Assembly: GCF_900009145.1 (NCBI RefSeq)
Contig: NZ_LN889764.1
Coordinates: forward strand, 1 to 64,000
Source of the DNA: Planktothrix tepida PCC 9214
GTDB lineage: Bacteria; Cyanobacteriota; Cyanobacteriia; Cyanobacteriales; Microcoleaceae
DNA length: 64,000 nt
Direction: 5' to 3'
A program made the position numbers and the translations under genes. Below the pieces are notes generated by a model. That model ran no database searches. It saw only the letters and a list, made by a program, of their open reading frames with translations, and was not told the origin of the DNA. Positions 24,316 to 34,695 of this stretch are shown here, one piece after another (the stretch's first letter is position 1; each line of letters opens with the position of its first letter).

Positions 24316-24717
24316 TTATGGGGTGCCGGAGTTTTGGGCTTGGGTGAGGGTGATTAAATCTTCAATCTGTTTAAGATTGGGATCACCGGCTAGGTAACTA
24401 ATTCCTCGATGGAGGTGTAGGCGAAACTGGGTGGCGAGGGTTTCGGGATCGGTTCCTAAGTGATCATTATGGCAACGTTGCTTGAGGGCAAGGAGTAATA
24501 AATCACACATCTGACCCCCAAAGACTTGCCATGTCATTTCAACATTACTATCGCTAGGTATGGGAACTGGGGAAGGAATTGTTGACTCTGCTAGTGAACG
24601 ACACAACGCCCAACGACACAGGATATTCCAATTCTCTATTTTGGTGACTCGCTTAAGTTTCGTCAGCTGCTCCTTCGCGGTTAGGGATAGGCGAATTCGC
24701 TCTAAGGGGGGTTCCAT
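24316..24717 (-). CDS. dndE: DNA phosphorothioation protein DndE
   Basis: Small DNA-binding component of the Dnd sulfur-modification complex (DndCDE). It has 133 residues. Family landmarks: IRLSLTAKEQLTKLKRVTKI at the N-terminus, NWNILCRWALCRSLAE, and the C-terminal HLHRGISYLAGDPNLKQI. DndE homologues form tetramers that bind nicked DNA. It is the last gene of the minus-strand run, 177 bases after dndD, so it may have its own promoter or translation signal. Confidence 0.9.
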   Translation of the reverse strand: MEPPLERIRLSLTAKEQLTKLKRVTKIENWNILCRWALCRSLAESTIPSPVPIPSDSNVEMTWQVFGGQMCDLLLLALKQRCHNDHLGTDPETLATQFRLHLHRGISYLAGDPNLKQIEDLITLTQAQNSGTP

Positions 24718-24894
24718 TGTGATTCACGAGACAATTCAGGAAATCCACAGATCTTAAATCTATATATAGAAAATTTTATACCGAAATACTGAAGAATTGT
24801 AATCTAGGTAGGGTATTTTTTTACAAAACCTTGATTTAAACTGAAGTTTTATGAAGCTTCTGTAAAGGAATATTGCAGACTCAACCTTATCTTC

Positions 24895-26880
24895 TTAAAA
24901 GAAATAACCAGGTTCAATGCGGGTTTGGCGTTGTGTTGGGTCGTATTTGAGTAAATACTCACGAGCGATGGCTTCTTGTTCGCGTAAACTGTTGACTTCC
25001 TTTTCGGCAATTTCCGTATCTGTTGAAAGTAAAATAACTTGATGGCTGGCTGCGGGAAAATACCGTTCAATTAAGTTTTGACGGTGGGAGGAGTCTAAAC
25101 GGCCTAATGGGGTATCAATGGCAATGGGTAAATTGCGACCGGAAACCCTCGCTAACCCCCATAAAAAAGCGATCGCTAACAGTTGTTTTTCTCCGGCTGA
25201 AAGGCGGTGTTTCTCAACAGGTTGTCCTTGGGGATCATAGAGGGATAAACTAAAATCTTCCGTTTGGATAATAACTCGATGCACTAAGTCGGATTTATGT
25301 AATAAATAACGAAAACATTCTGTTACTTCTACTTCTAATTTATTTAGCTTTTTTAAAGTCAGTTTTTCTTTAAAAACCTTCAATGTACTTTGAACTTTAG
25401 CCACGCTATCAATAATATGATTAACATTTTTTCGATCAATAGTATTTTGACTATATTTTTCTAAGTCTTTTTTAGCTTTTTCATACTGAGCTTGACATTT
25501 TTTACACCGTTCTTCTGCCTCTTCAATAGCCGTTTCCAGTTTTGTGAATTCTGTTTGAGCTTGGGAGACGGTTTCTAACAGTTGTTCATAGACCTCTGGA
25601 GGGGCGGCAACGGCTAATTGTCTATCCAGACTTGAAATTGTGTCTTCAATACTTCTTAAGGCGTCTAAGCTATCCTGAGAGGATTGAATTTGACTCGGAA
25701 GTTGATGTTCTAAAACGGTTTTTAACTGCTGGAGAACTTTATCATCTAGCCCCAAAAAAAGGGTTTCTTGATTTTCGGAATTATCGGTTAATTTGTGATA
25801 ATCATCTTCTAAATATAACTTAATATTTTCTAATTGGTTTGGGGTAATATTAAGCTGTTCTAAATATTGAAATAAACGTTGATCTCGTTCTTTAATAACA
25901 TCTTGAGCCACTTTTGCTTTTTGCAAATTTAGCTCTTGTTCTCCTTGGTTTTTAGCTTGTAATAATAGAGGAGTAATTAACGCCAAAGGTAAATAATCTC
26001 CAGCTAATTCACAAAGATTATCTCGCTGTTGTTTAGCTTTCTCTCGTTCATGTTCTAACTGTTGTTCTAATTGACTCCGTTCTCCGGCAATTTTTCCACC
26101 TTCGAGTTTAAATTTTTCCTTAGCCGCATATAACCTTTTTTTAGCTATTCCTGCTTTTTCCTTCAAGTTTAATATGGATTTTTCAGCATTTTCCCATTCT
26201 GATTTATAGCGGTTTAACTTGTTTTCAATGGCTTCTAAATCCGCTAATTCCTTAGAGTCAGCTAATTGTTTACGTTTACGGTTCGCTAAAATATCTAAAT
26301 CTATGGCTAACCGTTCTGCTAATTCTAACCCTAATAAAGATTGAATAGCCTGAACCACAACGTTAGGGGGTGTGTCTAAATCTGCTAATTCTTTAACTTG
26401 TTCGCCATCAAATAAAAATAAATTAGAAATGCCAATGGGAAAAAAATCTTCTATCCGTTCATCCCAGGTTTCTAACCAAGCGGAGTCCGGCCAATCATCA
26501 ATTAAGATTCCTAAAATATCTTTACCATTTTTCGGGTTTTTTGTCCAGCGACGTTTGACCCGAAATTGAACTTGCATATTTTGAACGATATGTTCAAATA
26601 ACAATTCGACACTGGTTTCTTCATGGGGTAGGGTATGTTTATTAACGGCTTGTTTGAGAAAGTCAGGATAACTTAAACTTCCCCGTGTTGAACATTGAGC
26701 CCGTTGTCCATAAAGTGCCAGTCGCATCGCATCCATTAAGGTTGTTTTTCCACCCCCATTCATACCACCGAATAACACAATAGGGCTAATAACATTATCA
26801 TTAATTTGAGGACGTAAATCAATGACTTGTTTCCCTCGATAGGGGCCAAAGTTTTCGACTGTTAATTCTAGGAAAATCAT
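24895..26880 (-). CDS. dndD: DNA phosphorothioation ATPase DndD
   Basis: SMC/Rad50-like ATPase of the DNA sulfur-modification complex. The start at 26880 (MIFLELTVENFGPYRGKQ) gives 661 residues, the normal DndD length; the longer frame reads through an intergenic palindrome. Walker A FGGMNGGGKTTLMDAM lies near residues 37-52, then a two-part coiled coil (about 190-520) with charged heptads, the signature HRLSAGEKQLLAIAFLWGLA and Walker B/D-loop IAIDTPLGRLDSSHRQNL. ATP-driven structural changes in DNA are thought to accompany sulfur insertion. It lies directly after dndC. Confidence 0.95.
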   Translation of the reverse strand: MIFLELTVENFGPYRGKQVIDLRPQINDNVISPIVLFGGMNGGGKTTLMDAMRLALYGQRAQCSTRGSLSYPDFLKQAVNKHTLPHEETSVELLFEHIVQNMQVQFRVKRRWTKNPKNGKDILGILIDDWPDSAWLETWDERIEDFFPIGISNLFLFDGEQVKELADLDTPPNVVVQAIQSLLGLELAERLAIDLDILANRKRKQLADSKELADLEAIENKLNRYKSEWENAEKSILNLKEKAGIAKKRLYAAKEKFKLEGGKIAGERSQLEQQLEHEREKAKQQRDNLCELAGDYLPLALITPLLLQAKNQGEQELNLQKAKVAQDVIKERDQRLFQYLEQLNITPNQLENIKLYLEDDYHKLTDNSENQETLFLGLDDKVLQQLKTVLEHQLPSQIQSSQDSLDALRSIEDTISSLDRQLAVAAPPEVYEQLLETVSQAQTEFTKLETAIEEAEERCKKCQAQYEKAKKDLEKYSQNTIDRKNVNHIIDSVAKVQSTLKVFKEKLTLKKLNKLEVEVTECFRYLLHKSDLVHRVIIQTEDFSLSLYDPQGQPVEKHRLSAGEKQLLAIAFLWGLARVSGRNLPIAIDTPLGRLDSSHRQNLIERYFPAASHQVILLSTDTEIAEKEVNSLREQEAIAREYLLKYDPTQRQTRIEPGYFF

Positions 26881-26901
26881 AATTAAAATAAGGATATGTG
26901 G

Positions 26902-26920
26902 AACAGGCATCTTGCCTGTT
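26902..26920. repeat. Perfect palindrome between dndC and dndD
   Basis: AACAGGCA-TCT-TGCCTGTT forms an 8-bp stem with a 3-base loop in the 44-base gap between the dndC stop and the dndD start. It could act as a transcript processing or attenuation hairpin within the operon, or be another interspersed repeat. Confidence 0.7.
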
Positions 26921-26924
26921 AATC

Positions 26925-28505
26925 TTAAGAAGGGTTTTGAAATTTCAAAGTTGCCCAACTTAACTGTTGAGGAGGGTCGGCTTTTTTGCCCTCAACAGCT
27001 TGCTTAACTTGTTCAACACTTCCGGTTTTTGCGGCTTCTTTTAAATTGCGTTCATAATGAGCATTCTCAATAGCATCCTGTTGCGGTCGAGAACTGGTTT
27101 CAAAACAGCGTTCTAAATCATCATAAATTCCCGTCCGTCTTGCCATTGTTTTATACTGACGTTCAGTATCCATTAATTTTGCCATTAGTTCCATATACAT
27201 CCCATCCCCTTCACTGAGTTCTTCTAAAATTTGCCATTCATCTCCACCCAGAACATGATTTCCCGCACCGATACGGGGGTCTTCAAAGGGTTCTCCCATA
27301 ATTTCCTCATAAATTTTGGGTAAACTATCATCAAATTCGTGTTTTTCCTCTAACCATATTCGCCGAATTTCGCTCAATTCTCCTATTGTAATTAAGGTAA
27401 TATCTCGATATTCTTCCGGTGCTGTTTGTCTAATTTGTTGTTGTGCTTCTAATACCCGTCTTAACCAATGTTCTCGCCATTTTTTGGTATATGGCCCCGG
27501 TATAGGTTCAACAGATATTTCCCCATCAACATTTCGTTCAAAGAGTTGAACAGTTCCAACAAGTCGCCTAAAATCTCGTTTATCTCGATCATTTTGGATA
27601 TCTAATTCTAAACGCAGATCCACAAGAGGTTGTAACCATTCTTTTTCTTGATCATTTTGTATCATTGCAGTTAATGATTTATCACTATCCACCAAAGTAC
27701 AAACCCAACAGCCAAACCGAGAGCTTCCACAGCTAGGAGTAGAGGTATCGACAACAAGAGGGCATTCATTATCTGCTGTTGCGCCTCGATACATCGCAAA
27801 TAATTCTTTATTATCCAGACCCCAAGGATTTTCCCATTGCATTAAATACATCCAAACTTCGTCAGTTCGCCAACTTTCAATAGGCGTATAAAGTAGAGAA
27901 CTAGGTAAATGAGGATGAGGACAAAGATGATCACGAACTCGTTTTGTTTCCCGTTTAGCCATGATCATTGCACGGTTAGAACTTTCTGTTTTGCGTGTTC
28001 CTAAAATTACAATAGCTTCACCATTTGACCGTACAACATCACGAATAAAACGGTTAGAAGGATCAATTTTTAAGCGTCCAGTACACCATCTAAACCGATG
28101 ACGAGGTGCAGGATAACCTTTCCCTATTAAACCTGCCCAATAAGTTTGTGTTACTTCAGGTGTTAACAAATGAGGTTCAATAGGAAGATTATTTGTCTGA
28201 GCTACTAATTTCATTCTATTTAAAGAATTATTCACCCAAGCAGAGACAATAGGGTTTTCTACTAAAGTATCTGTACTAATAACATAAATCTTCTTATTGA
28301 GCTTTTCAGGAGGAAGTGTTGCGATCGCATTCCAAATCAGTTGTAAACTAGCTGTGCTGTCTTTACCTCCAGAATAGCCAATAACCCAAGGAATTTGATC
28401 TAAACAATATAAATCTTTAATTTCCTGAGTCAGACTTTCAAGATCATTGACAAATTCATCAATATTTCGAGATGGGAATAAGGATATTTGTTGTTCAATA
28501 GCCAT
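26925..28505 (-). CDS. dndC: DNA phosphorothioation sulfurtransferase DndC
   Basis: PP-loop ATP pyrophosphatase with an iron-sulfur cluster, giving the sulfur for backbone modification. It has 526 residues. The PP-loop WVIGYSGGKDSTASLQLIW lies near 40-58. Cysteine-bearing motifs follow: RFRWCTGRLKIDPSNRF, NECPLVVDTSTPSCGSSRFG and CWVCTLVDSDKSL, matching the cluster ligands expected for DndC. The C-terminal part is helical and charged. It lies 7 bases after the HNH gene and 44 bases before dndD. No dndA is in the window, so a housekeeping cysteine desulfurase elsewhere probably feeds it. Confidence 0.96.
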   Translation of the reverse strand: MAIEQQISLFPSRNIDEFVNDLESLTQEIKDLYCLDQIPWVIGYSGGKDSTASLQLIWNAIATLPPEKLNKKIYVISTDTLVENPIVSAWVNNSLNRMKLVAQTNNLPIEPHLLTPEVTQTYWAGLIGKGYPAPRHRFRWCTGRLKIDPSNRFIRDVVRSNGEAIVILGTRKTESSNRAMIMAKRETKRVRDHLCPHPHLPSSLLYTPIESWRTDEVWMYLMQWENPWGLDNKELFAMYRGATADNECPLVVDTSTPSCGSSRFGCWVCTLVDSDKSLTAMIQNDQEKEWLQPLVDLRLELDIQNDRDKRDFRRLVGTVQLFERNVDGEISVEPIPGPYTKKWREHWLRRVLEAQQQIRQTAPEEYRDITLITIGELSEIRRIWLEEKHEFDDSLPKIYEEIMGEPFEDPRIGAGNHVLGGDEWQILEELSEGDGMYMELMAKLMDTERQYKTMARRTGIYDDLERCFETSSRPQQDAIENAHYERNLKEAAKTGSVEQVKQAVEGKKADPPQQLSWATLKFQNPS

Positions 28506-28512
28506 GCTGCGA

Positions 28513-29481
28513 TCACCCTAATACAGTTTTAAAGATGTTGTTTCGATGCCACTGAATAGCATCAAGCCTTGGATAAAATTTTTCCATGTTGGGTAAAAAT
28601 AAAGAATCTCCATTAAAATCTTTCATGGGTCTAGCATGAGGTGATATTTCTTGTAAATCTTCTGCAACAATAATTTTATAATTATTATCTATTGTAAACC
28701 AACCTCGATCAAATGCCCAATGATGATTTTTACAAAATGAAATTCCATTATCAATTTTATTGTCATAAAATAAAGACATCGGTTTTATATGTGCTCCATC
28801 TACAATAGTTTGATTAATAGAACGAATTACTTTCAACCCACAAAACGCGCATTTATAATCATAAATATGAATAATGGATTTCCTAAAAAAAGCATCTCTC
28901 ATAACTGATTTATAAATTCTGATTTTTTTTTCAATTAATTGATCTAACTGTGTTAGCTCTTGTTCGGCTTCAGTTTGTAAATTTTGATTTACTCCTAAAA
29001 TATCTTCTAATTCTTTTTGGGTATCAGAAAACCAAACTGATATTAAAGTATCTACTAATTCTTTTCGGGTTTCTCCATTTTTGATAAGTTCAAATAATTG
29101 CTCATCTAACTTAGCATATTCTACCGCTTGTTTCAATTTATTAATACTCTTAGGTTGAAACCCATCAAAATCAGGCTTTAACTTCAAGTGCCAAAAATTT
29201 TCCCGTTTCAAGTGAAAAAAAGGATAGTGTAACCCTCCTGAATATCCTTCATTTCCCAAAAATTGCCAATGCTTTTTGAAGGTATTAATTAATTCATCTG
29301 ATACTGTAATTTCGTTTTTCTCAATAATACCTTGTGTGATCAGATCAATAACAGATAACAACAAGATAGGTTTATAAGGAGCATCACCTCGTTGACGAAT
29401 TTTATTAACCCTTAATTCCGAAAAGCGTTTACAATAGTCTCCAAGAGTTTGCCTGTTGTTAGGTTGTTGTGTACTGTCCAT
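28513..29481 (-). CDS. HNH endonuclease with a putative phosphorothioate-binding N-domain
   Basis: A 322-residue protein at the head of the dnd operon. Residues about 10-150 contain APYKPILLLSVIDLITQGII, YSGGLHYPFFHLKRENFW and related helices. This pattern resembles the sulfur-binding domain of ScoMcrA-like enzymes (APHKPLLLL, YPFWRL type). Residues about 200-290 form an HNH domain with YDYKCAFCGL, VDGAHIKPMS and NGISFCKNHHWAFDRGW, with histidines and CxxC present. Enzymes of this design cut phosphorothioated DNA, but here the gene travels with the genes that make it. The N-domain assignment is by eye. Confidence 0.75.
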   Translation of the reverse strand: MDSTQQPNNRQTLGDYCKRFSELRVNKIRQRGDAPYKPILLLSVIDLITQGIIEKNEITVSDELINTFKKHWQFLGNEGYSGGLHYPFFHLKRENFWHLKLKPDFDGFQPKSINKLKQAVEYAKLDEQLFELIKNGETRKELVDTLISVWFSDTQKELEDILGVNQNLQTEAEQELTQLDQLIEKKIRIYKSVMRDAFFRKSIIHIYDYKCAFCGLKVIRSINQTIVDGAHIKPMSLFYDNKIDNGISFCKNHHWAFDRGWFTIDNNYKIIVAEDLQEISPHARPMKDFNGDSLFLPNMEKFYPRLDAIQWHRNNIFKTVLG

Positions 29482-29599
29482 ATTTTCCTCCTAACCGAAA
29501 TTTAGATATACTCCAGTTCTTTTAATTTCGGTAAGATAGCCTTTTGGGTAAACTTTTTTTAAAAACCCACTGTTTGCCTTATCAGCTTATCTTGCACTC

Positions 29600-31174
29600 A
29601 TGAAACCTGCAACTCCTTCCGATCTGATCGCAACAATTTGTAATCCTGGGACTGAGATCTCCCAATTTTTGGACATCTACCTGAACCAAAGTGATCGCCT
29701 TTTTGTCCAAAAAACCCAAATGGCCGGAACCGAAACCTTTATCAGTGCTGTTACCCTAGAATGGATAGCCGCAAAAGTCGGTTTTGCCTCCCAACTCCCC
29801 TTATTTCAACCTCATTTAGACTCAACAGTTAACGTCAAACGCGACGCTGAAACCGTTGATGAGATTTTCCAACGTCCCCTCGACTGGTCACGTCAAGCAA
29901 CCTTAACCCAATATCTTACTAACCATAAAGACCATAAATTTCCTGCGGTGTTAGTTGTCCTTAGTCCCGCCTGGGTCGATGACCCCAAAGCCACTCAATG
30001 GGGTAAACACGGACGGGCCACCGAGTCCGCCATCGAATTTCTCCCCCTCGACAGCCAAGGAAAACTGGGACTATTGCAGATGTCGAGTGATGTCTCTGTG
30101 TTTGCTTTGGATGGACAACACCGCTTAATGGGGATACAAGGTCTGATGCAACTCCTACGGACAGGACACTTGCAACCCTACACTAAACAGAAAAAACCCA
30201 TCGGGGATGCTATTACTGTTAAAGAACTTAGCCAAAAATTCGGTATCACTCCCCAACAGTTACAACAGTTATCCCAAGAAACCATCGGAGTTGAATTTAT
30301 TCCCGCAGTGGTGAAGGGAGAAACTCGCGCCGAAGCCAGACACAGGGTAAGGTCTATTTTTGTTCACGTTAACTTAATGGCCGTCAAACTTAGTAAAGGA
30401 CAGTTGGCGCTATTAGATGAAGATGATGGGTTTTCTATTGTTACTCGTCAGGTGGCCGTTTCCCATGCTTTATTTTGCGATAAACCCGGACGCAACCCTA
30501 GAATTAATTGGGATAGTGCCACAGTCGCCTCTAAGTCAACGGTCTTAACCACCCTGCAAGCATTAACCGATATGGGTCAACGGTATTTAACCCCCAAATT
30601 TCCCCACTGGAAAGCTGCAAAATCTGGGTTAATTCCCCTGCGACCCACCGAAGCTGAATTAGAAGCAGGTATTGAGGAGTTAAAACAATTCTTTGATGGC
30701 ATGGCGAGTTTACCCAGTTATCAAAAGTTAGAACAAGGTTGGGAAACTCCAGCTTTGCGTCGGTTTAGCTTTGAGAAACCCGGAGGAGAGGGAAATTTAC
30801 TGTTTCGTCCTGTGGGTCAAGTCGCCGTAGCAGTCGCGTTGGGGGTGTTGGTGTTTTATCAACAACGGTCGGTAACAGAGATTTTTGAGAAATTGCAAAG
30901 TTTTGATGGGTCTGGGGGGTTTAGTGGCATGGAATATCCTGACTCGCTCTGGTATGGGGTATTATATGACCCAAATAAGCGCCGAGTGAGGGTAGCCGGA
31001 AAAGAGTTGGCGGCGAAGTTACTCATTTATTTATTAGGGGGAATGCAGCAACCGATGGAATGCGCTGAGTTACGCAAAGCCTTAGCAGATGCTAGGACGT
31101 TTGAGAATAAAGCCGTGAGTTTTGAAGGTCAATTTGTCAAACCCAGAGAAGTCGGTTTACCCGAAATTTTGTAG
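29600..31174 (+). CDS. dndB: DGQHR-domain protein DndB
   Basis: Member of the DndB/DGQHR family. DndB proteins regulate the level of phosphorothioation, and in some hosts act as transcriptional repressors of dnd genes. It has 524 residues with the defining motif FALDGQHRLMGIQGL near residues 169-183 and a downstream RHRVRSIFVHVNLMAVKLSK segment typical of the family. It is divergent from the HNH-dndCDE run with a 118-base gap, so a shared regulatory region could let DndB control both directions; that is inference. Codon use is less AT-rich than the neighbouring HNH gene. Confidence 0.9.
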   Translation: MKPATPSDLIATICNPGTEISQFLDIYLNQSDRLFVQKTQMAGTETFISAVTLEWIAAKVGFASQLPLFQPHLDSTVNVKRDAETVDEIFQRPLDWSRQATLTQYLTNHKDHKFPAVLVVLSPAWVDDPKATQWGKHGRATESAIEFLPLDSQGKLGLLQMSSDVSVFALDGQHRLMGIQGLMQLLRTGHLQPYTKQKKPIGDAITVKELSQKFGITPQQLQQLSQETIGVEFIPAVVKGETRAEARHRVRSIFVHVNLMAVKLSKGQLALLDEDDGFSIVTRQVAVSHALFCDKPGRNPRINWDSATVASKSTVLTTLQALTDMGQRYLTPKFPHWKAAKSGLIPLRPTEAELEAGIEELKQFFDGMASLPSYQKLEQGWETPALRRFSFEKPGGEGNLLFRPVGQVAVAVALGVLVFYQQRSVTEIFEKLQSFDGSGGFSGMEYPDSLWYGVLYDPNKRRVRVAGKELAAKLLIYLLGGMQQPMECAELRKALADARTFENKAVSFEGQFVKPREVGLPEIL

Positions 31175-31595: not shown

Positions 31596-33146
31596 TTATT
31601 CATCAGACTCAATCTTTCCAAGAATACGACCTAACTCACTCTTTTCATTCACCGCAATTCGAGTCGGAGAACCACTAATAATCCGTTCATAATCTCGGAA
31701 AGAATCAGTAATCAGAGGGCCGTGATCACTAATCGTATATTCTCGAATGCCTTTATCATGCCAAGAACCCCTCATCTTAAACACGTTTAAGGCACGGGAC
31801 ATTTCCCCTCGAATTTCCACATATTGCAACATCAAAATCGTATCGGTAATCGTTGAAATATGGGAATCCGTAATCGAATGGGAACCCATAAATTGATCCG
31901 TTGTATTCGTGAAAAATCCTGTAATTTCCTCCTGTTTAGCATAACCCGTTACCCCAATCACAAATTGACGAAAAGCGTTATTACTCACCCCTCGTGCTAA
32001 AGCTGATAACGAATCAATCGCAATTCGAGCGGGTTTAAACTCAGAAATTTCCGATTTAATAATTTGTAAATGATCTTCTAATCCCGCAGATTCAGGATAA
32101 CTACATAAAATTTTCAGTAATCCTTTTCGTTCCATTTCTTCAAAATCAATCCCCCAAGAACTCGCATTTCTAAATAACTGAGCACGAGATTCTTCATAGG
32201 CAAATAACATGGCTCGTTGACCATTTTTACAGGCATCCTGTAGGAAAATACTGACTAATAACGTTTTACCCGTTCCCGTTGCTCCCGTTGCCAAAATAAT
32301 CGAATCTTTGAAGAACCCACCGCCACACATGAGATCGAGGGTAGGATTTCCAGAAGAAACCCGGGCATTGGACGAACGTTGAGTGAGGCGCATCGCCCCC
32401 AGAGGAAAGATCCCAATCCCATTATTGGTAATCGTAAAGGGATATTCCCCCTTCATGTGGGTTGTACCCCGCAATTTGAGAATTTCCGCCGTGCGTCGCC
32501 GTCGTTCTCCCTCTAAAACGTTCCGAAAGATGACGACATTATCGGAAACAAATTCTTCCACCCCAAATCGCGCCACCGGGCCATATTCTGCCTCTCGTTC
32601 CGTTGTCATAATCGTGGTAGCTCCCACCTGTTTCAATCGCGCTACCAGGCGGAAAATCTCTCGTCTGACCACTCCTGCGGCTTCATATTGTTGGAAAACG
32701 GCCGTTACCGAGTCAATCGAAACCCGTCGAGCTTTATATTTACGAATAGCATATTGAATCCGCTCAATTAAAGCTGATAGGTCAAAATTTCCTACAATAT
32801 CTTGCCCCTCTGGGTCAGGAGAAGCATCTAAAATAAATAACTTTCCTTCATCAATAAATTGTTGGAGATCCCATCCAAAACTAGAAGCATTTTTAATAAT
32901 ATCTGTAGGTGATTCTTCAAACGTGACGAAGATCCCAGGTTCATCAAAATAGGTAATTCCATTGTAGAGAAACTGAACCGCAAACAAGGTTTTTCCGGTT
33001 CCTGATGTCCCGCTCACTAACGTCGTTCTAGCAATAGGCATTCCGCCATGACTAATATCATCAAAACCTTCAATCATGGTGCGGATTTTCTGCACCCCTA
33101 TCAGTTTACGTCCATTGCTTTTGGTTTCCTGAGAACTTTCACTCAT
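31596..33146 (-). CDS. kaiC: Circadian clock protein KaiC
   Basis: Hexameric autokinase/phosphatase/ATPase core of the cyanobacterial clock. The start at 33146 (MSESSQETKSNGRKLIGVQK) gives 516 residues; a 36-codon upstream extension is unlike the family. Duplicated RecA-like domains: CI with GTSGTGKTLFAVQF and VTFEESP, CII with GATGTGKTLLVSIF and AYEESRAQ. The phosphorylated serine-threonine pair is in SHISTITDT, and the C-terminal A-loop region is present (ERIISGSPTRIAVNEKSELG). It follows kaiB on the same strand after about 200 bases. Confidence 0.98.
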   Translation of the reverse strand: MSESSQETKSNGRKLIGVQKIRTMIEGFDDISHGGMPIARTTLVSGTSGTGKTLFAVQFLYNGITYFDEPGIFVTFEESPTDIIKNASSFGWDLQQFIDEGKLFILDASPDPEGQDIVGNFDLSALIERIQYAIRKYKARRVSIDSVTAVFQQYEAAGVVRREIFRLVARLKQVGATTIMTTEREAEYGPVARFGVEEFVSDNVVIFRNVLEGERRRRTAEILKLRGTTHMKGEYPFTITNNGIGIFPLGAMRLTQRSSNARVSSGNPTLDLMCGGGFFKDSIILATGATGTGKTLLVSIFLQDACKNGQRAMLFAYEESRAQLFRNASSWGIDFEEMERKGLLKILCSYPESAGLEDHLQIIKSEISEFKPARIAIDSLSALARGVSNNAFRQFVIGVTGYAKQEEITGFFTNTTDQFMGSHSITDSHISTITDTILMLQYVEIRGEMSRALNVFKMRGSWHDKGIREYTISDHGPLITDSFRDYERIISGSPTRIAVNEKSELGRILGKIESDE

Positions 33147-33352
33147 AATTTTTATCTTAAAGAATATGGCTCTGATCGATGAACCTGTGAGACTTTTGCT
33201 ACATTTACCACAAAATCTGGAACAGTAGGGGATCAAGTCATCATTCTCAACCAAGAGTTCCCAGCAGTTGGTAAGGGTGGATCAGAATTGACGGACATCA
33301 GTAATCTATTTTACCTTGTCCTTACCCTCCAAAATCGATTTCAAGTCCAGAT

Positions 33353-33655
33353 TTACTCATCCATCAGTTCTTCATAGAGAAGATCGAGTCCAATTAAAAC
33401 TTTTTCTCGATCCGAGAGATCACCAATTATTTTCCGCACCGGAGGAGGCAAGATTTTAGACAGGGTAGGAGTCGCTAAAATTTTATCTTCCTCTGCCAGT
33501 TGTGGATTTTTGAGAACGTCAATGACTTTTAAGGCATAAACCCCTTGAAATTCCTGTTCTAAGATGTCTTTAAGGGTTTTCAATGCTCGGACTGAGTTGG
33601 GAGTATTCCCCGCCACATAGAGTTTGAGGACATAGGTTTTTTTAAGAGGACTCAT
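33353..33655 (-). CDS. kaiB: Circadian clock protein KaiB
   Basis: Fold-switching clock protein that binds KaiC and sequesters KaiA. It has 100 residues with [20 protein letters not shown] at the N-terminus and [20 protein letters not shown], the thioredoxin-like core. The acidic C-terminus is LLYEELMDE. The length is the same as other KaiB proteins. It lies between kaiA and kaiC, consistent with the standard kaiABC arrangement. Confidence 0.98.
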
Positions 33656-33732
33656 AAATGTTGATTGGCCGGTGTTAGATGGGGTAGGAAAAACTTATTT
33701 TATCGTTAAAGATGAAGGTTCAATTACTATTT

Positions 33733-34695
33733 CTAGGAATCTCTAGGAATTGATCGGCGATACATTTCACATAAATGGGCAATGGTGTCAATTAAAGTTA
33801 ATCGGTAATCTAATAAAACATCTTCGCTTCTTCCTTCTAATTTAAGCTGTTTAGAAAAATTATCCATCAACTCCATGTGAATTTCCACAATTCGGGTGAC
33901 AGGAACATCAGCAAAAAAAGCCAAATTTACATATTCATCAATTTTATTATTCAAACTTTGATCGGCTGAAAAATAACTGAGAACGATTTGGCGATATTTG
34001 GTTTTAAGTTGATCGATAAATTCCTGCCGTTCGGCCGGGGCCATATTACGAATAAAATTTTGGGGGCTTCTTTTATAGTACACACCCAGGTATCCTAAAC
34101 GCTCATGGAGTTTACTGACCAGGCGACGTTGTTGACGAATGATAAAATTCGTTAGCTCTGTCGGTGCGTCACCACTGGCAGATTGTTCGGTGAGGCGAGT
34201 TGTAATCGCATTGGTAATAAATTGACTAATCGCTTTATCAATATAAGCGGGAATCTGATTGAGTTGATTGTCCCCGATTCGTACCTCGGTACAGTGGTAG
34301 AAATAGGGTGAGGATTCTCCCGGTAATGAAGTTTCATCTGAAGAATCTGATAGGGTCGTTAAACGCTCTATCAGTTGGGGTTGTGCTGTGATAATCACCG
34401 CAGGTACAGAAATAGACTGATTGTGGAGATATTGGCTCAGAGCCAGCAAATCGGAATTATCCTCAAGAACGATACAATCGAGTTGCTGTCTTTCTTGAGC
34501 CATGAATTGGAGAAAGGCTTCAACAGACTGAATCTGCACTGCCGTATAACTATCATTCTGTAAATGGGACATGACAATATTAGCCAGTCTCACAGTCGGC
34601 ACAAAAACACCGATGGATAGCTGTGGACGCCACACAGTTGGGGAGGTTGGGACTAAGTTTTCACCGAACAAATCAGTCAGAGCCAATTGCTCCAT
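33733..34695 (-). CDS. kaiA: Circadian clock protein KaiA
   Basis: Stimulator of KaiC autophosphorylation. The 320 residues include both domains: an N-terminal pseudo-receiver domain (about 28-160, LSIGVFVPTVRLANIVM onwards) lacking phospho-acceptor geometry, and the C-terminal KaiC-binding dimer domain (about 190-310) with LHERLGYLGVYYKRSPQNFI and LIDTIAHLCEMYRRSIPR. It is a long-form KaiA, unlike the truncated KaiA seen in some Nostocales. It is the first gene of the kaiABC run. Confidence 0.97.
   Translation of the reverse strand: MEQLALTDLFGENLVPTSPTVWRPQLSIGVFVPTVRLANIVMSHLQNDSYTAVQIQSVEAFLQFMAQERQQLDCIVLEDNSDLLALSQYLHNQSISVPAVIITAQPQLIERLTTLSDSSDETSLPGESSPYFYHCTEVRIGDNQLNQIPAYIDKAISQFITNAITTRLTEQSASGDAPTELTNFIIRQQRRLVSKLHERLGYLGVYYKRSPQNFIRNMAPAERQEFIDQLKTKYRQIVLSYFSADQSLNNKIDEYVNLAFFADVPVTRIVEIHMELMDNFSKQLKLEGRSEDVLLDYRLTLIDTIAHLCEMYRRSIPRDS

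What the first reader, a model, noticed from the sequence alone, without database searches (positions are those of the whole stretch)
24316..31174. Dnd modification operon headed by an HNH enzyme with an apparent phosphorothioate-binding domain
DndC, DndD, DndE and DndB are recognisable, so the host should carry sulfur in its DNA backbone. The first gene of the dndCDE operon (28513-29481) encodes an HNH nuclease whose N-terminal third resembles the sulfur-binding domain of ScoMcrA-type enzymes, which cut phosphorothioated DNA. Such enzymes normally occur in hosts without dnd genes. Co-transcription with the modifier suggests a new arrangement: a context-specific nuclease, one that cuts foreign modification patterns, a copy-control device, or a nuclease held off by DndB.
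Basis: partly seen in the sequence, partly recalled or inferred. Interest (0 to 1): 0.85.

Follow-up and report, generated by a model that had tools for sequence, protein, structure and literature searches.

The report
Matched sulfur reader and writer operon
A cyanobacterium carries, in the same operon as the genes predicted to put sulfur into its DNA, a nuclease with a sulfur-sensing domain, and across related species the sensing part is exchanged together with the target-choosing part of the sulfur writer, which suggests the two form one matched defence system.

Summary

The arrangement is not a one-off. In 386 cyanobacterial genomes 34 of 41 SBD loci lie within 4 kb of dndC, although such enzymes were reported near dnd in under 3.6% of cases overall. 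The DndH model finds nothing in the dnd+ genomes. Dnd-linked HNH nucleases are already in print.

What I found no report of is a co-swap. Across 85 loci one SBD class (L) goes with one class of DndC target region (alpha) in 20 of 21 cases; the other SBDs never do (0 of 64). On a tree of the rest of the locus, SBD class changes 15 times, DndC class 15, jointly 16 (30.5 if shuffled). In 43 loci with DndB between the two genes the counts are 7, 7 and 7.

Best reading: SBD-HNH is the dedicated, specificity-matched effector of cyanobacterial Dnd, sensing the mark its own DndC writes. PT in the host, cleavage, and whether PT restrains or triggers the nuclease are untested.

The parts
28513..29481 (-). 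SBD-HNH nuclease gene, 322 aa, first gene of the operon
   Evidence: 7 nt before dndC
28987..29481 (-). sulfur-binding domain (residues 1-165): Y36-K37-P38 and Y86-P87-F88 stand where ScoMcrA has H116-R117-P118 and Y164-P165-F166; base-reading loop near residues 104-112
   Evidence: P38 in 68 of 68 and P87 in 66 of 68 linked loci
28516..28914 (-). HNH nuclease domain (residues 190-322), H231/N245/H254 with C211, C214, C250
   Evidence: PF13391 41.6 bits over cut-off 21; HNH triad in 67 of 68 loci
26925..28505 (-). dndC, sulfurtransferase, 526 aa
   Evidence: TIGR03183 692 bits
27861..28238 (-). DndC residues 90-215: target region that is exchanged together with the SBD
28077..28118 (-). DndC residues 130-143, GYPAP-RHR-FRW...: the published 'specificity loop'; Arg-Xxx-Arg predicts GpsGCC by the published rule
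   Evidence: rule from PMC12193691 (passages)
27471..27614 (-). DndC residues 298-345: second, weaker co-varying segment
24895..26880 (-). dndD, SMC-like ATPase (ORF opens at 26958; probable start ATG at 26880); its residues 226-270 (ORF numbering) also co-vary weakly with the SBD
   Evidence: TIGR03185 674 bits, match starts at residue 27
24316..24717 (-). dndE
   Evidence: PF08870 149 bits, TIGR03184 128.7 bits
29600..31174 (+). divergent DndB-like DGQHR protein, 524 aa
   Evidence: PF14072 60.1 bits, TIGR03187 161.6 bits, TIGR03233 only 20.6
29482..29599 (.). 118-nt divergent intergenic region between SBD-HNH and the DndB-like gene, presumed promoter region
   Evidence: consensus scan found no sigma-70-like site, which is weak evidence in a cyanobacterium

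Best explanation
The gene is the dedicated nuclease of a cyanobacterial phosphorothioate (PT) restriction system, DndBCDE plus SBD-HNH, that does without DndFGH. DndC-D-E writes PT at a short motif. The SBD of the nuclease reads PT in that same context, so reader and writer must match and are exchanged together in evolution. Most likely the reading step lets the nuclease tell marked self DNA from unmarked invader DNA: it is gated by cognate PT, in the manner of the PT-sensing nucleases DndI and SspE, and attacks DNA without the mark. Shown here: SBD fold and pocket, intact HNH residues, purifying selection, linkage, absence of a DndH-model match, co-exchange of SBD and DndC target region. Inferred: PT in this host, PT binding, DNA cleavage, that matching means reading the same motif, and the direction of the gating.
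For: Fold and pocket. Both halves under purifying selection: dN/dS 0.06-0.25 in six of seven pairs; the seventh, window versus L140, 0.49 in the SBD at dS 0.033 and 0.13 in the HNH domain. Linkage: 34 of 41 SBD loci within 3.9 kb of dndC; 36 of 39 SBD genomes have dndC against 58 of 347 others (relatedness not corrected). Independent scan, best 80 of 262 relatives: 73 intact SBD-HNH with dndC, 3 with a broken SBD-HNH frame and dndC, 4 where the contig ends first. DndH model: 1 of 386 genomes, and that one not dnd+. Co-swap: in pairs with HNH at least 80% identical, a changed SBD goes with median DndC identity .81 instead of .94, while DndB stays (.96.96), DndD nearly (.91.90) and DndE falls less (.94.89); the main fall is in DndC 76-225; two islands of about 50-80% nucleotide identity separated by about 2.2 kb at 86-99% in three pairs of loci; SBD L-type with alpha 20, L with non-alpha 1, Y with non-alpha 64, Y with alpha 0; Fitch changes 15, 15, joint 16, shuffled mean 30.5, minimum 25; in the 47 loci with the genes more than 1.2 kb apart 7, 7, joint 7, and the same in the 43 of these with DndB in between (shuffled mean 13.4, minimum 11). 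The neighbouring dnd_assoc_4 swaps with the SBD, but in 31 loci without an SBD it is only weakly coupled to DndC (.111, 24 of 500 shuffles) against .401 in 60 loci with one. A GmrSD-type nuclease sits in the same slot in a locus of the same genus (L070 against L069).
Against: The closest biochemically studied relatives (EcoWI, SprMcrA and others) cut PT-DNA rather than spare it (PMC7461809, passages), and one of the active enzymes there, Mae9806I, has a name pointing to Microcystis (recall). No NTPase domain, which drives gating in SspE and DndI, was found here (Pfam). Correlation of classes cannot by itself tell matching from mutual avoidance. Within the large Y class there is no fine-scale co-variation (partial r -0.08), and at coarse cluster cuts (k = 2 to 6) the count of joint changes was no better than simulation. 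One exception, L136. DndC is not the only co-varying part: DndD 226-270 falls from .89 to .76, about as much as the weaker DndC segment 298-345 (.94 to .79), and DndC 350-505 from .97 to .89. By the published loop rule nearly all classes look like GpsGCC writers, so the motif difference behind alpha is unknown. dndC is often present without SBD-HNH (60 of 94 loci).
Confidence: 0.62

Rival explanations
1. Avoidance: SBD-HNH is an ordinary PT-dependent (type IV or IIM) cutter of foreign PT-DNA. Its SBD must not read the host's own motif, so each change of DndC target forces a change of SBD.
For: The SBD-HNH enzymes whose PT preference was established cut PT-DNA (PMC7461809, passages). Two-class correlation is also what avoidance gives. 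Unlinked SBD-HNH genes in dnd+ hosts (L162, L163, L164) carry a different loop class.
Against: It would not explain why the gene sits in the dnd locus in 34 of 41 cases, nor why rarer DndC classes q, p and o come with SBD clusters of their own instead of either common SBD (those are single lineages, so weak). Avoidance requires L to read both the beta and gamma motifs and Y to read alpha. The window's pair has the Tyr that ScoMcrA uses on GpsGCC and the Arg-Xxx-Arg loop said to write GpsGCC.
Confidence: 0.17
2. Self-targeting device: the SBD reads the host's own PT and the HNH can cut the host genome, but expression, partial modification or DndB keep it silent until phage attack, loss of control or over-modification triggers suicide.
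For: Matched reading plus the known behaviour of SBD-HNH enzymes; divergent DndB-like gene; suicide action on self-DNA was proposed as possible for Dnd-associated nucleases (PMC10853773, passages).
Against: Of the neighbours tested (DndB, DndD, DndE, dnd_assoc_4, a second DndD-like ATPase, a methyltransferase) only the adjacent dnd_assoc_4 and one short DndD segment co-vary clearly with the SBD; DndB does not.
Confidence: 0.15
3. Hitchhiking: the driver is the adjacent dnd_assoc_4 protein, or one long tract, and the SBD is carried along.
For: dnd_assoc_4, where present (56 of 85 loci), lies at a median of 35 nt upstream and swaps with the SBD (.955 versus .622). In Planktothrix SBD-HNH and the DndC N-terminal part differ as one block.
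Against: In loci without SBD, dnd_assoc_4 is barely coupled to DndC (.111). In 43 loci DndB lies between the two swapped genes, and in the three pairs aligned at DNA level DndB and the HNH domain are conserved between the tracts. In the window's genome dnd_assoc_4 lies on another contig.
Confidence: 0.06
4. Relic: the nuclease or its SBD is inactive, which would explain tolerance.
For: A few copies are broken: L077 (stop in the HNH motif), L081, L157, L185, L216, L253.
Against: Catalytic triad in 67 of 68 and pocket prolines in 68 and 66 of 68 loci; purifying selection.
Confidence: 0.02

Closest known systems
SBD-HNH PT-dependent endonucleases EcoWI, SprMcrA, Ksp11411I, Bsp305I, Mae9806I (PMC7461809, passages)
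   Same: SBD plus HNH without SRA, similar size, pocket and HNH residues; NF045808 match of 127 bits
   Different: Those are reported rarely near dnd (under 3.6%) and cut PT-DNA; here the gene is a regular part of the dnd locus and its SBD is exchanged with DndC's target region; below the NF045808 cut-off
SBDHga (8h0l), sulfur-binding domain of Hga (Hahella ganghwensis by recall)
   Different: Leu-Pro in the pocket where the window has Tyr-Pro; described as sequence-promiscuous (recalled; paper not found in the library)
wHTH(SBD)+SAD+HNH proteins in Dnd loci (PMC10853773, passages)
   Same: PT-reader plus HNH encoded in Dnd neighbourhoods, mostly without DndFGH (197 of 698 taxa with it); proposed as alternative restriction component
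   Different: That type is described with a SAD/SRA domain, absent here; no reader-writer co-exchange is reported in the passages I read
IscS-DndBCDE-DndI (PMC11662687, part 1 of 5 read)
   Same: PT-sensing nuclease working with DndBCDE that spares PT-marked self DNA
   Different: DndI uses an ATPase; none found here; co-transcribed with dndFGH, for which the DndH model finds nothing here
SspABCD-SspE (PMC9646914 and PMC8092258, starts of abstracts in listings)
   Same: PT reader gating a nuclease next to its writer
   Different: SspE is an NTPase and nickase; motif CpsCA; no such NTPase here

Membership tests
SBD-HNH PT-dependent endonuclease (EcoWI/SprMcrA type) | sulfur-binding domain fold at the N-terminus | tested here: met
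SBD-HNH PT-dependent endonuclease (EcoWI/SprMcrA type) | sulfur cavity residues (basic residue-Pro; aromatic or aliphatic residue-Pro-Phe) | tested here: met
   K37-P38 and Y86-P87-F88 align with R117-P118 and Y164-P165-F166
SBD-HNH PT-dependent endonuclease (EcoWI/SprMcrA type) | HNH catalytic residues and zinc cysteines | tested here: met
   H231/N245/H254, C211, C214, C250
SBD-HNH PT-dependent endonuclease (EcoWI/SprMcrA type) | curated cut-off of NF045808 (180 bits) | tested here: not met
   127.2 bits; 0 of 386 cyanobacterial genomes reach it
SBD-HNH PT-dependent endonuclease (EcoWI/SprMcrA type) | PT-dependent cleavage | not testable with these tools
   biochemistry
ScoMcrA type (SBD-SRA-HNH) | SRA/SAD domain between SBD and HNH | tested here: not met
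   no SRA in the Pfam scan; only a helical linker of about 40 residues
Dnd modification system | DndC, DndD, DndE equivalogs over cut-off | tested here: met
Dnd modification system | DndB equivalog over cut-off | tested here: not met
   TIGR03233 20.6 against 328; a DGQHR/PF14072 relative is present. The rest of the genome was not searched for DndB
Dnd modification system | cysteine desulfurase (DndA or a substitute such as IscS) | tested here: inconclusive
   no DndA over cut-off; three cysteine-desulfurase-like proteins above 320 bits elsewhere in the genome
Dnd modification system | PT in host DNA | not testable with these tools
   needs LC-MS
DndBCDE-FGH restriction system | DndFGH | tested here: not met
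   only the DndH model TIGR03237 was searched: no match in the own genome or in any dnd+ genome; 1 of 386 matches. DndF and DndG not searched
PT-sensing NTPase nucleases (SspE, DndI) | NTPase domain in the nuclease | tested here: not met
   Pfam finds only HNH_2 above cut-off
Specificity-matched restriction-modification system | reader and writer share target specificity | tested here: inconclusive
   co-exchange in about 14 shared changes; the shared motif itself was not measured

The most novel reading that the evidence does not exclude
Cyanobacteria run a modular PT restriction-modification system in which target choice is an exchangeable pair: a target region inside DndC (residues about 90-215) and the SBD of the co-encoded HNH nuclease. 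The pair has been swapped as a unit about fourteen times while the catalytic parts (HNH, DndB, most of DndD and DndE, rest of DndC) largely stayed. This locates the target-recognition region of DndC by evolution alone, and turns the SBD, known as an enemy of PT-DNA, into a reader of self.
Probability: 0.6. Interest if true: 0.86.

Novelty: new variant of a known kind. Interest (0 to 1): 0.72.

Why it matters
Nearly half of PT-containing strains were reported to lack dndFGH, sspE and pbeABCD (PMC7464106, passage), and what they restrict with is an open question. SBD-HNH enzymes next to dnd were left as unresolved cases in print because they ought to be suicidal. The co-exchange of SBD and DndC target region indicates that in cyanobacteria the two are one functional unit, predicts which DndC segment chooses the motif, and offers natural matched and mismatched pairs to test whether PT restrains or triggers the nuclease. 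It also gives a set of naturally varied PT readers and writers for mapping or engineering.

Full report
WHAT IS THERE. The window lies in a cyanobacterial genome of 6.78 Mb whose relatives are Planktothrix: the best outside match of the nuclease is 88% identical, in Oscillatoriales cyanobacterium CG2_30_40_61, and G255 of the same genus has a contig of the same length as the Planktothrix rubescens PCC7821 chromosome. On the minus strand, SBD-HNH (29481-28513), dndC (28505-26925), dndD (probable start 26880, end 24895) and dndE (24717-24316) follow each other with gaps of 7, 44 and 177 nt. A DndB-like DGQHR gene diverges at 29600. DndC, D and E pass their curated cut-offs; the DndB-like protein passes PF14072 and the DGQHR model but not the DndB equivalog. 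DndA is not in the cluster; the genome has several cysteine-desulfurase-like proteins, none over the DndA cut-off.

HOW COMMON IS THE ARRANGEMENT. In 386 cyanobacterial genomes an SBD profile finds 41 loci in 39 genomes (pieces of one locus counted once); 34 lie within 3.9 kb of a dndC over cut-off. Thirty-six of the 39 genomes have dndC, against 58 of the other 347 (not corrected for relatedness). Of the seven unlinked loci, three are full-length genes in dnd+ hosts (L162 in the window's own genome, L163, L164), one is a fragment in a dnd+ host (G111), one is truncated in a genome without dndC (G133), and two are in genomes with only weak DndC-like matches (G011, G170), the latter about 5 kb from divergent DndC, D and E relatives. 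An independent scan of GTDB contigs gave 262 relatives, of which the best 80 were kept, all cyanobacterial by title: 73 intact SBD-HNH with dndC, 3 with a broken SBD-HNH frame and dndC, and 4 where the contig ends 0.8-5.0 kb downstream with no dndC seen. In print, fewer than 3.6% of such enzymes were near dnd, left as about 65 unresolved cases (PMC7461809, passages). So cyanobacteria are a strong exception. The DndH model matches 1 of 386 genomes, and that genome is not dnd+, in line with the reported absence of dndFGH in Nostocales (PMC8569181, passages). The gene can be lost: 60 of 94 dndC loci have no SBD match within 6 kb, and broken copies next to intact dndC occur (L077, L081, L157, L185, L216, L253). 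The three loci with a broken dndC inside a contig (L158, L160, L161) have no intact SBD-HNH: L158 and L160 have none, and in L161 the nuclease is itself truncated, with transposase-like sequence (by eye) at its 3' end. Three loci are few, but the asymmetry is that of a restriction enzyme and its modifier, the opposite of what a free-standing PT cutter should show. Within one genus, L069 has SBD-HNH and L070 a GmrSD-type nuclease in the same slot.

THE CO-SWAP. Sixty-eight distinct loci with SBD-HNH, DndC and DndD were compared pairwise (2278 pairs). Of the 321 pairs with HNH at least 80% identical, 227 have similar SBDs (65% or more) and 89 have quite different ones (below 58%); 5 lie between. 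Median identities in the two groups are: SBD .91 and .50, HNH .89 and .85, DndC .94 and .81, DndD .91 and .90, DndE .94 and .89 (191 and 53 pairs), DndB .96 and .96. Window by window (42 discordant and 170 concordant pairs), the DndC loss lies at residues 76-225, with minima of .57 and .43 at 166-210, and more weakly at about 286-360. DndB shows nothing of the kind. DndD has one dip, residues 226-270 (.83 and .75 against .93 and .87), about as deep as the weaker DndC segment, and DndE a slight one at 46-75 (.87 against .93). Restricted to loci with DndB in between: DndC 90-215 .95 to .69, DndC 298-345 .94 to .79, DndD 226-270 .89 to .76, DndC 350-505 .97 to .89, whole DndD .93 to .91. The main segment contains the loop that a 2025 study, based on structure prediction with mutants and mass spectrometry, calls the DndC specificity loop (PMC12193691, passages). 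At DNA level the pairs L128/L089, L074/L084 and L207/L238 show two islands of about 50-80% identity, one covering the SBD and some 450 nt upstream, one the DndC region, separated by about 2.2 kb of HNH and DndB sequence at 86-99%; further dips follow dndC, between dndC and dndD or in inserted DNA. The two islands are separate tracts that had to be exchanged together.

HOW OFTEN. Eighty-five loci (100 with DndC, identical ones dropped) were classed by SBD and by DndC 90-215. The L-type SBD (mostly Leu or Ile before the Pro-Phe, loop mostly GGRPQ) occurs with the alpha DndC class in 20 cases and without it in 1 (L136); all 64 other SBDs go with non-alpha DndC. On a tree of HNH, DndB, DndD and the rest of DndC, SBD class changes at least 15 times, DndC class 15 times and the joint state 16 times, so about 14 changes are shared; with DndC labels shuffled the joint count averages 30.5, minimum 25. 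In the 47 loci with the two genes more than 1.2 kb apart the counts are 7, 7 and 7 (shuffled mean 13.5, minimum 10); in the other 38 they are 8, 8 and 9 (16.7, minimum 12). In the 43 of the 47 that have DndB in between they are again 7, 7 and 7 (13.4, minimum 11). Among pairs with nearly identical DndC outside the region, 32 of 32 alpha-gamma pairs differ in SBD class, while 162 of 162 same-class pairs and both beta-gamma pairs share it. The partial Mantel correlation of SBD with DndC 90-215, given the rest of DndC, is .42 (0 of 1000 permutations); for HNH it is .03. The classes were named after seeing the tables; unsupervised cuts agree at k = 8, 10 and 12, not at k = 2 to 6 by the count of joint changes. 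In Planktothrix itself the window (Y, beta), P. rubescens L148 (L, alpha) and PCC 11201 L180 (Y, gamma) differ most in SBD-HNH and the first two fifths of DndC and less elsewhere; here the two sit in one block, so hitchhiking cannot be excluded there.

CONTROLS. The 157-aa dnd_assoc_4 gene, found in 56 of the 85 loci and then at a median of 35 nt upstream of the SBD, also swaps (.955 versus .622). It could be the driver, but in 31 loci without any SBD it is hardly coupled to DndC (.111, 24 of 500 shuffles), against .401 (0 of 500) in 60 loci with one; and in the window's genome it is on another contig. The upstream DndD-like ATPase and the downstream methyltransferase do not swap (.938 and .959 in discordant pairs, from 22 and 4 pairs).

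WHAT IT MEANS. The SBD and the target region of DndC are bound to each other by selection. The simplest reason is that the SBD reads the context its own DndC writes. The window's pair fits: Arg-Xxx-Arg in the loop, said to write GpsGCC, and the Tyr-Pro pocket, of which ScoMcrA's Tyr contacts GpsGCC. The same correlation would also arise if the SBD had to avoid the host's motif; I rate that less likely because it does not explain residence in the dnd locus, but only a binding assay can settle it. Given matched reading, PT must gate the nuclease, either sparing marked DNA, as DndI does, or as a trigger, as in SspE (PMC11662687, part 1 of 5 read), or the system is a suicide device. Sequence cannot decide the direction. 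I favour gated restriction of unmarked DNA.

NOVELTY. SBD-HNH enzymes, their occasional closeness to dnd, and their possible role as alternative restriction components are in print (PMC7461809, PMC10853773, passages). In my searches I saw no report that the enzyme is a regular component of cyanobacterial dnd loci, or that its SBD is exchanged together with a target region of DndC. I rate it as a new variant of a known kind.

Noticed in passing
G000 contig C6:7812-8792 (L162:7812-8792): The window's own genome has a second, unlinked SBD-HNH gene of another loop class, beside a divergent 383-aa gene with HNH-like motifs by eye.
   Followed up: partly
window dndD residues 226-270, about 26149-26283: A short DndD segment co-varies with the SBD class (.89 to .76), about as much as the weaker DndC segment; possibly a third part of the exchanged set.
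   Followed up: partly
L070:10777-13167: A GmrSD_N nuclease of 797 aa occupies the slot that SBD-HNH has in L069 of the same genus.
   Followed up: partly
L181:4026-6095, L255:3589-5661 and many others: A second DndD-like ATPase (about 690 aa, 155-164 bits on TIGR03185 in the two tested, below cut-off) stands upstream of dnd_assoc_4 and SBD-HNH in many loci; it does not swap with the SBD.
   Followed up: partly
G000 contig C47:78731-79186 (L260): dnd_assoc_4 (TIGR04062) of the window's genome lies away from the dnd operon; in many other loci it is adjacent to SBD-HNH and is exchanged with the SBD.
   Followed up: yes
L166:7486-9036 and L165:7486-10329: An SBD-only gene stands beside an SBD-HNH gene; in L166 about 5 kb from divergent DndC, DndD and DndE relatives.
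   Followed up: no
L101:6482-7453: A LAGLIDADG endonuclease gene sits between SBD-HNH and dndC.
   Followed up: no
many loci, e.g. L093:6088-7263, L112:10864-12051: Cyanobacterial dnd loci carry several kinds of DndB/DGQHR paralogues in different orientations, some in the slot between DndB and DndC.
   Followed up: no
window 31596-34695: The dnd locus sits next to what look by eye like kaiC, kaiB and kaiA clock genes (not run against a library).
   Followed up: no
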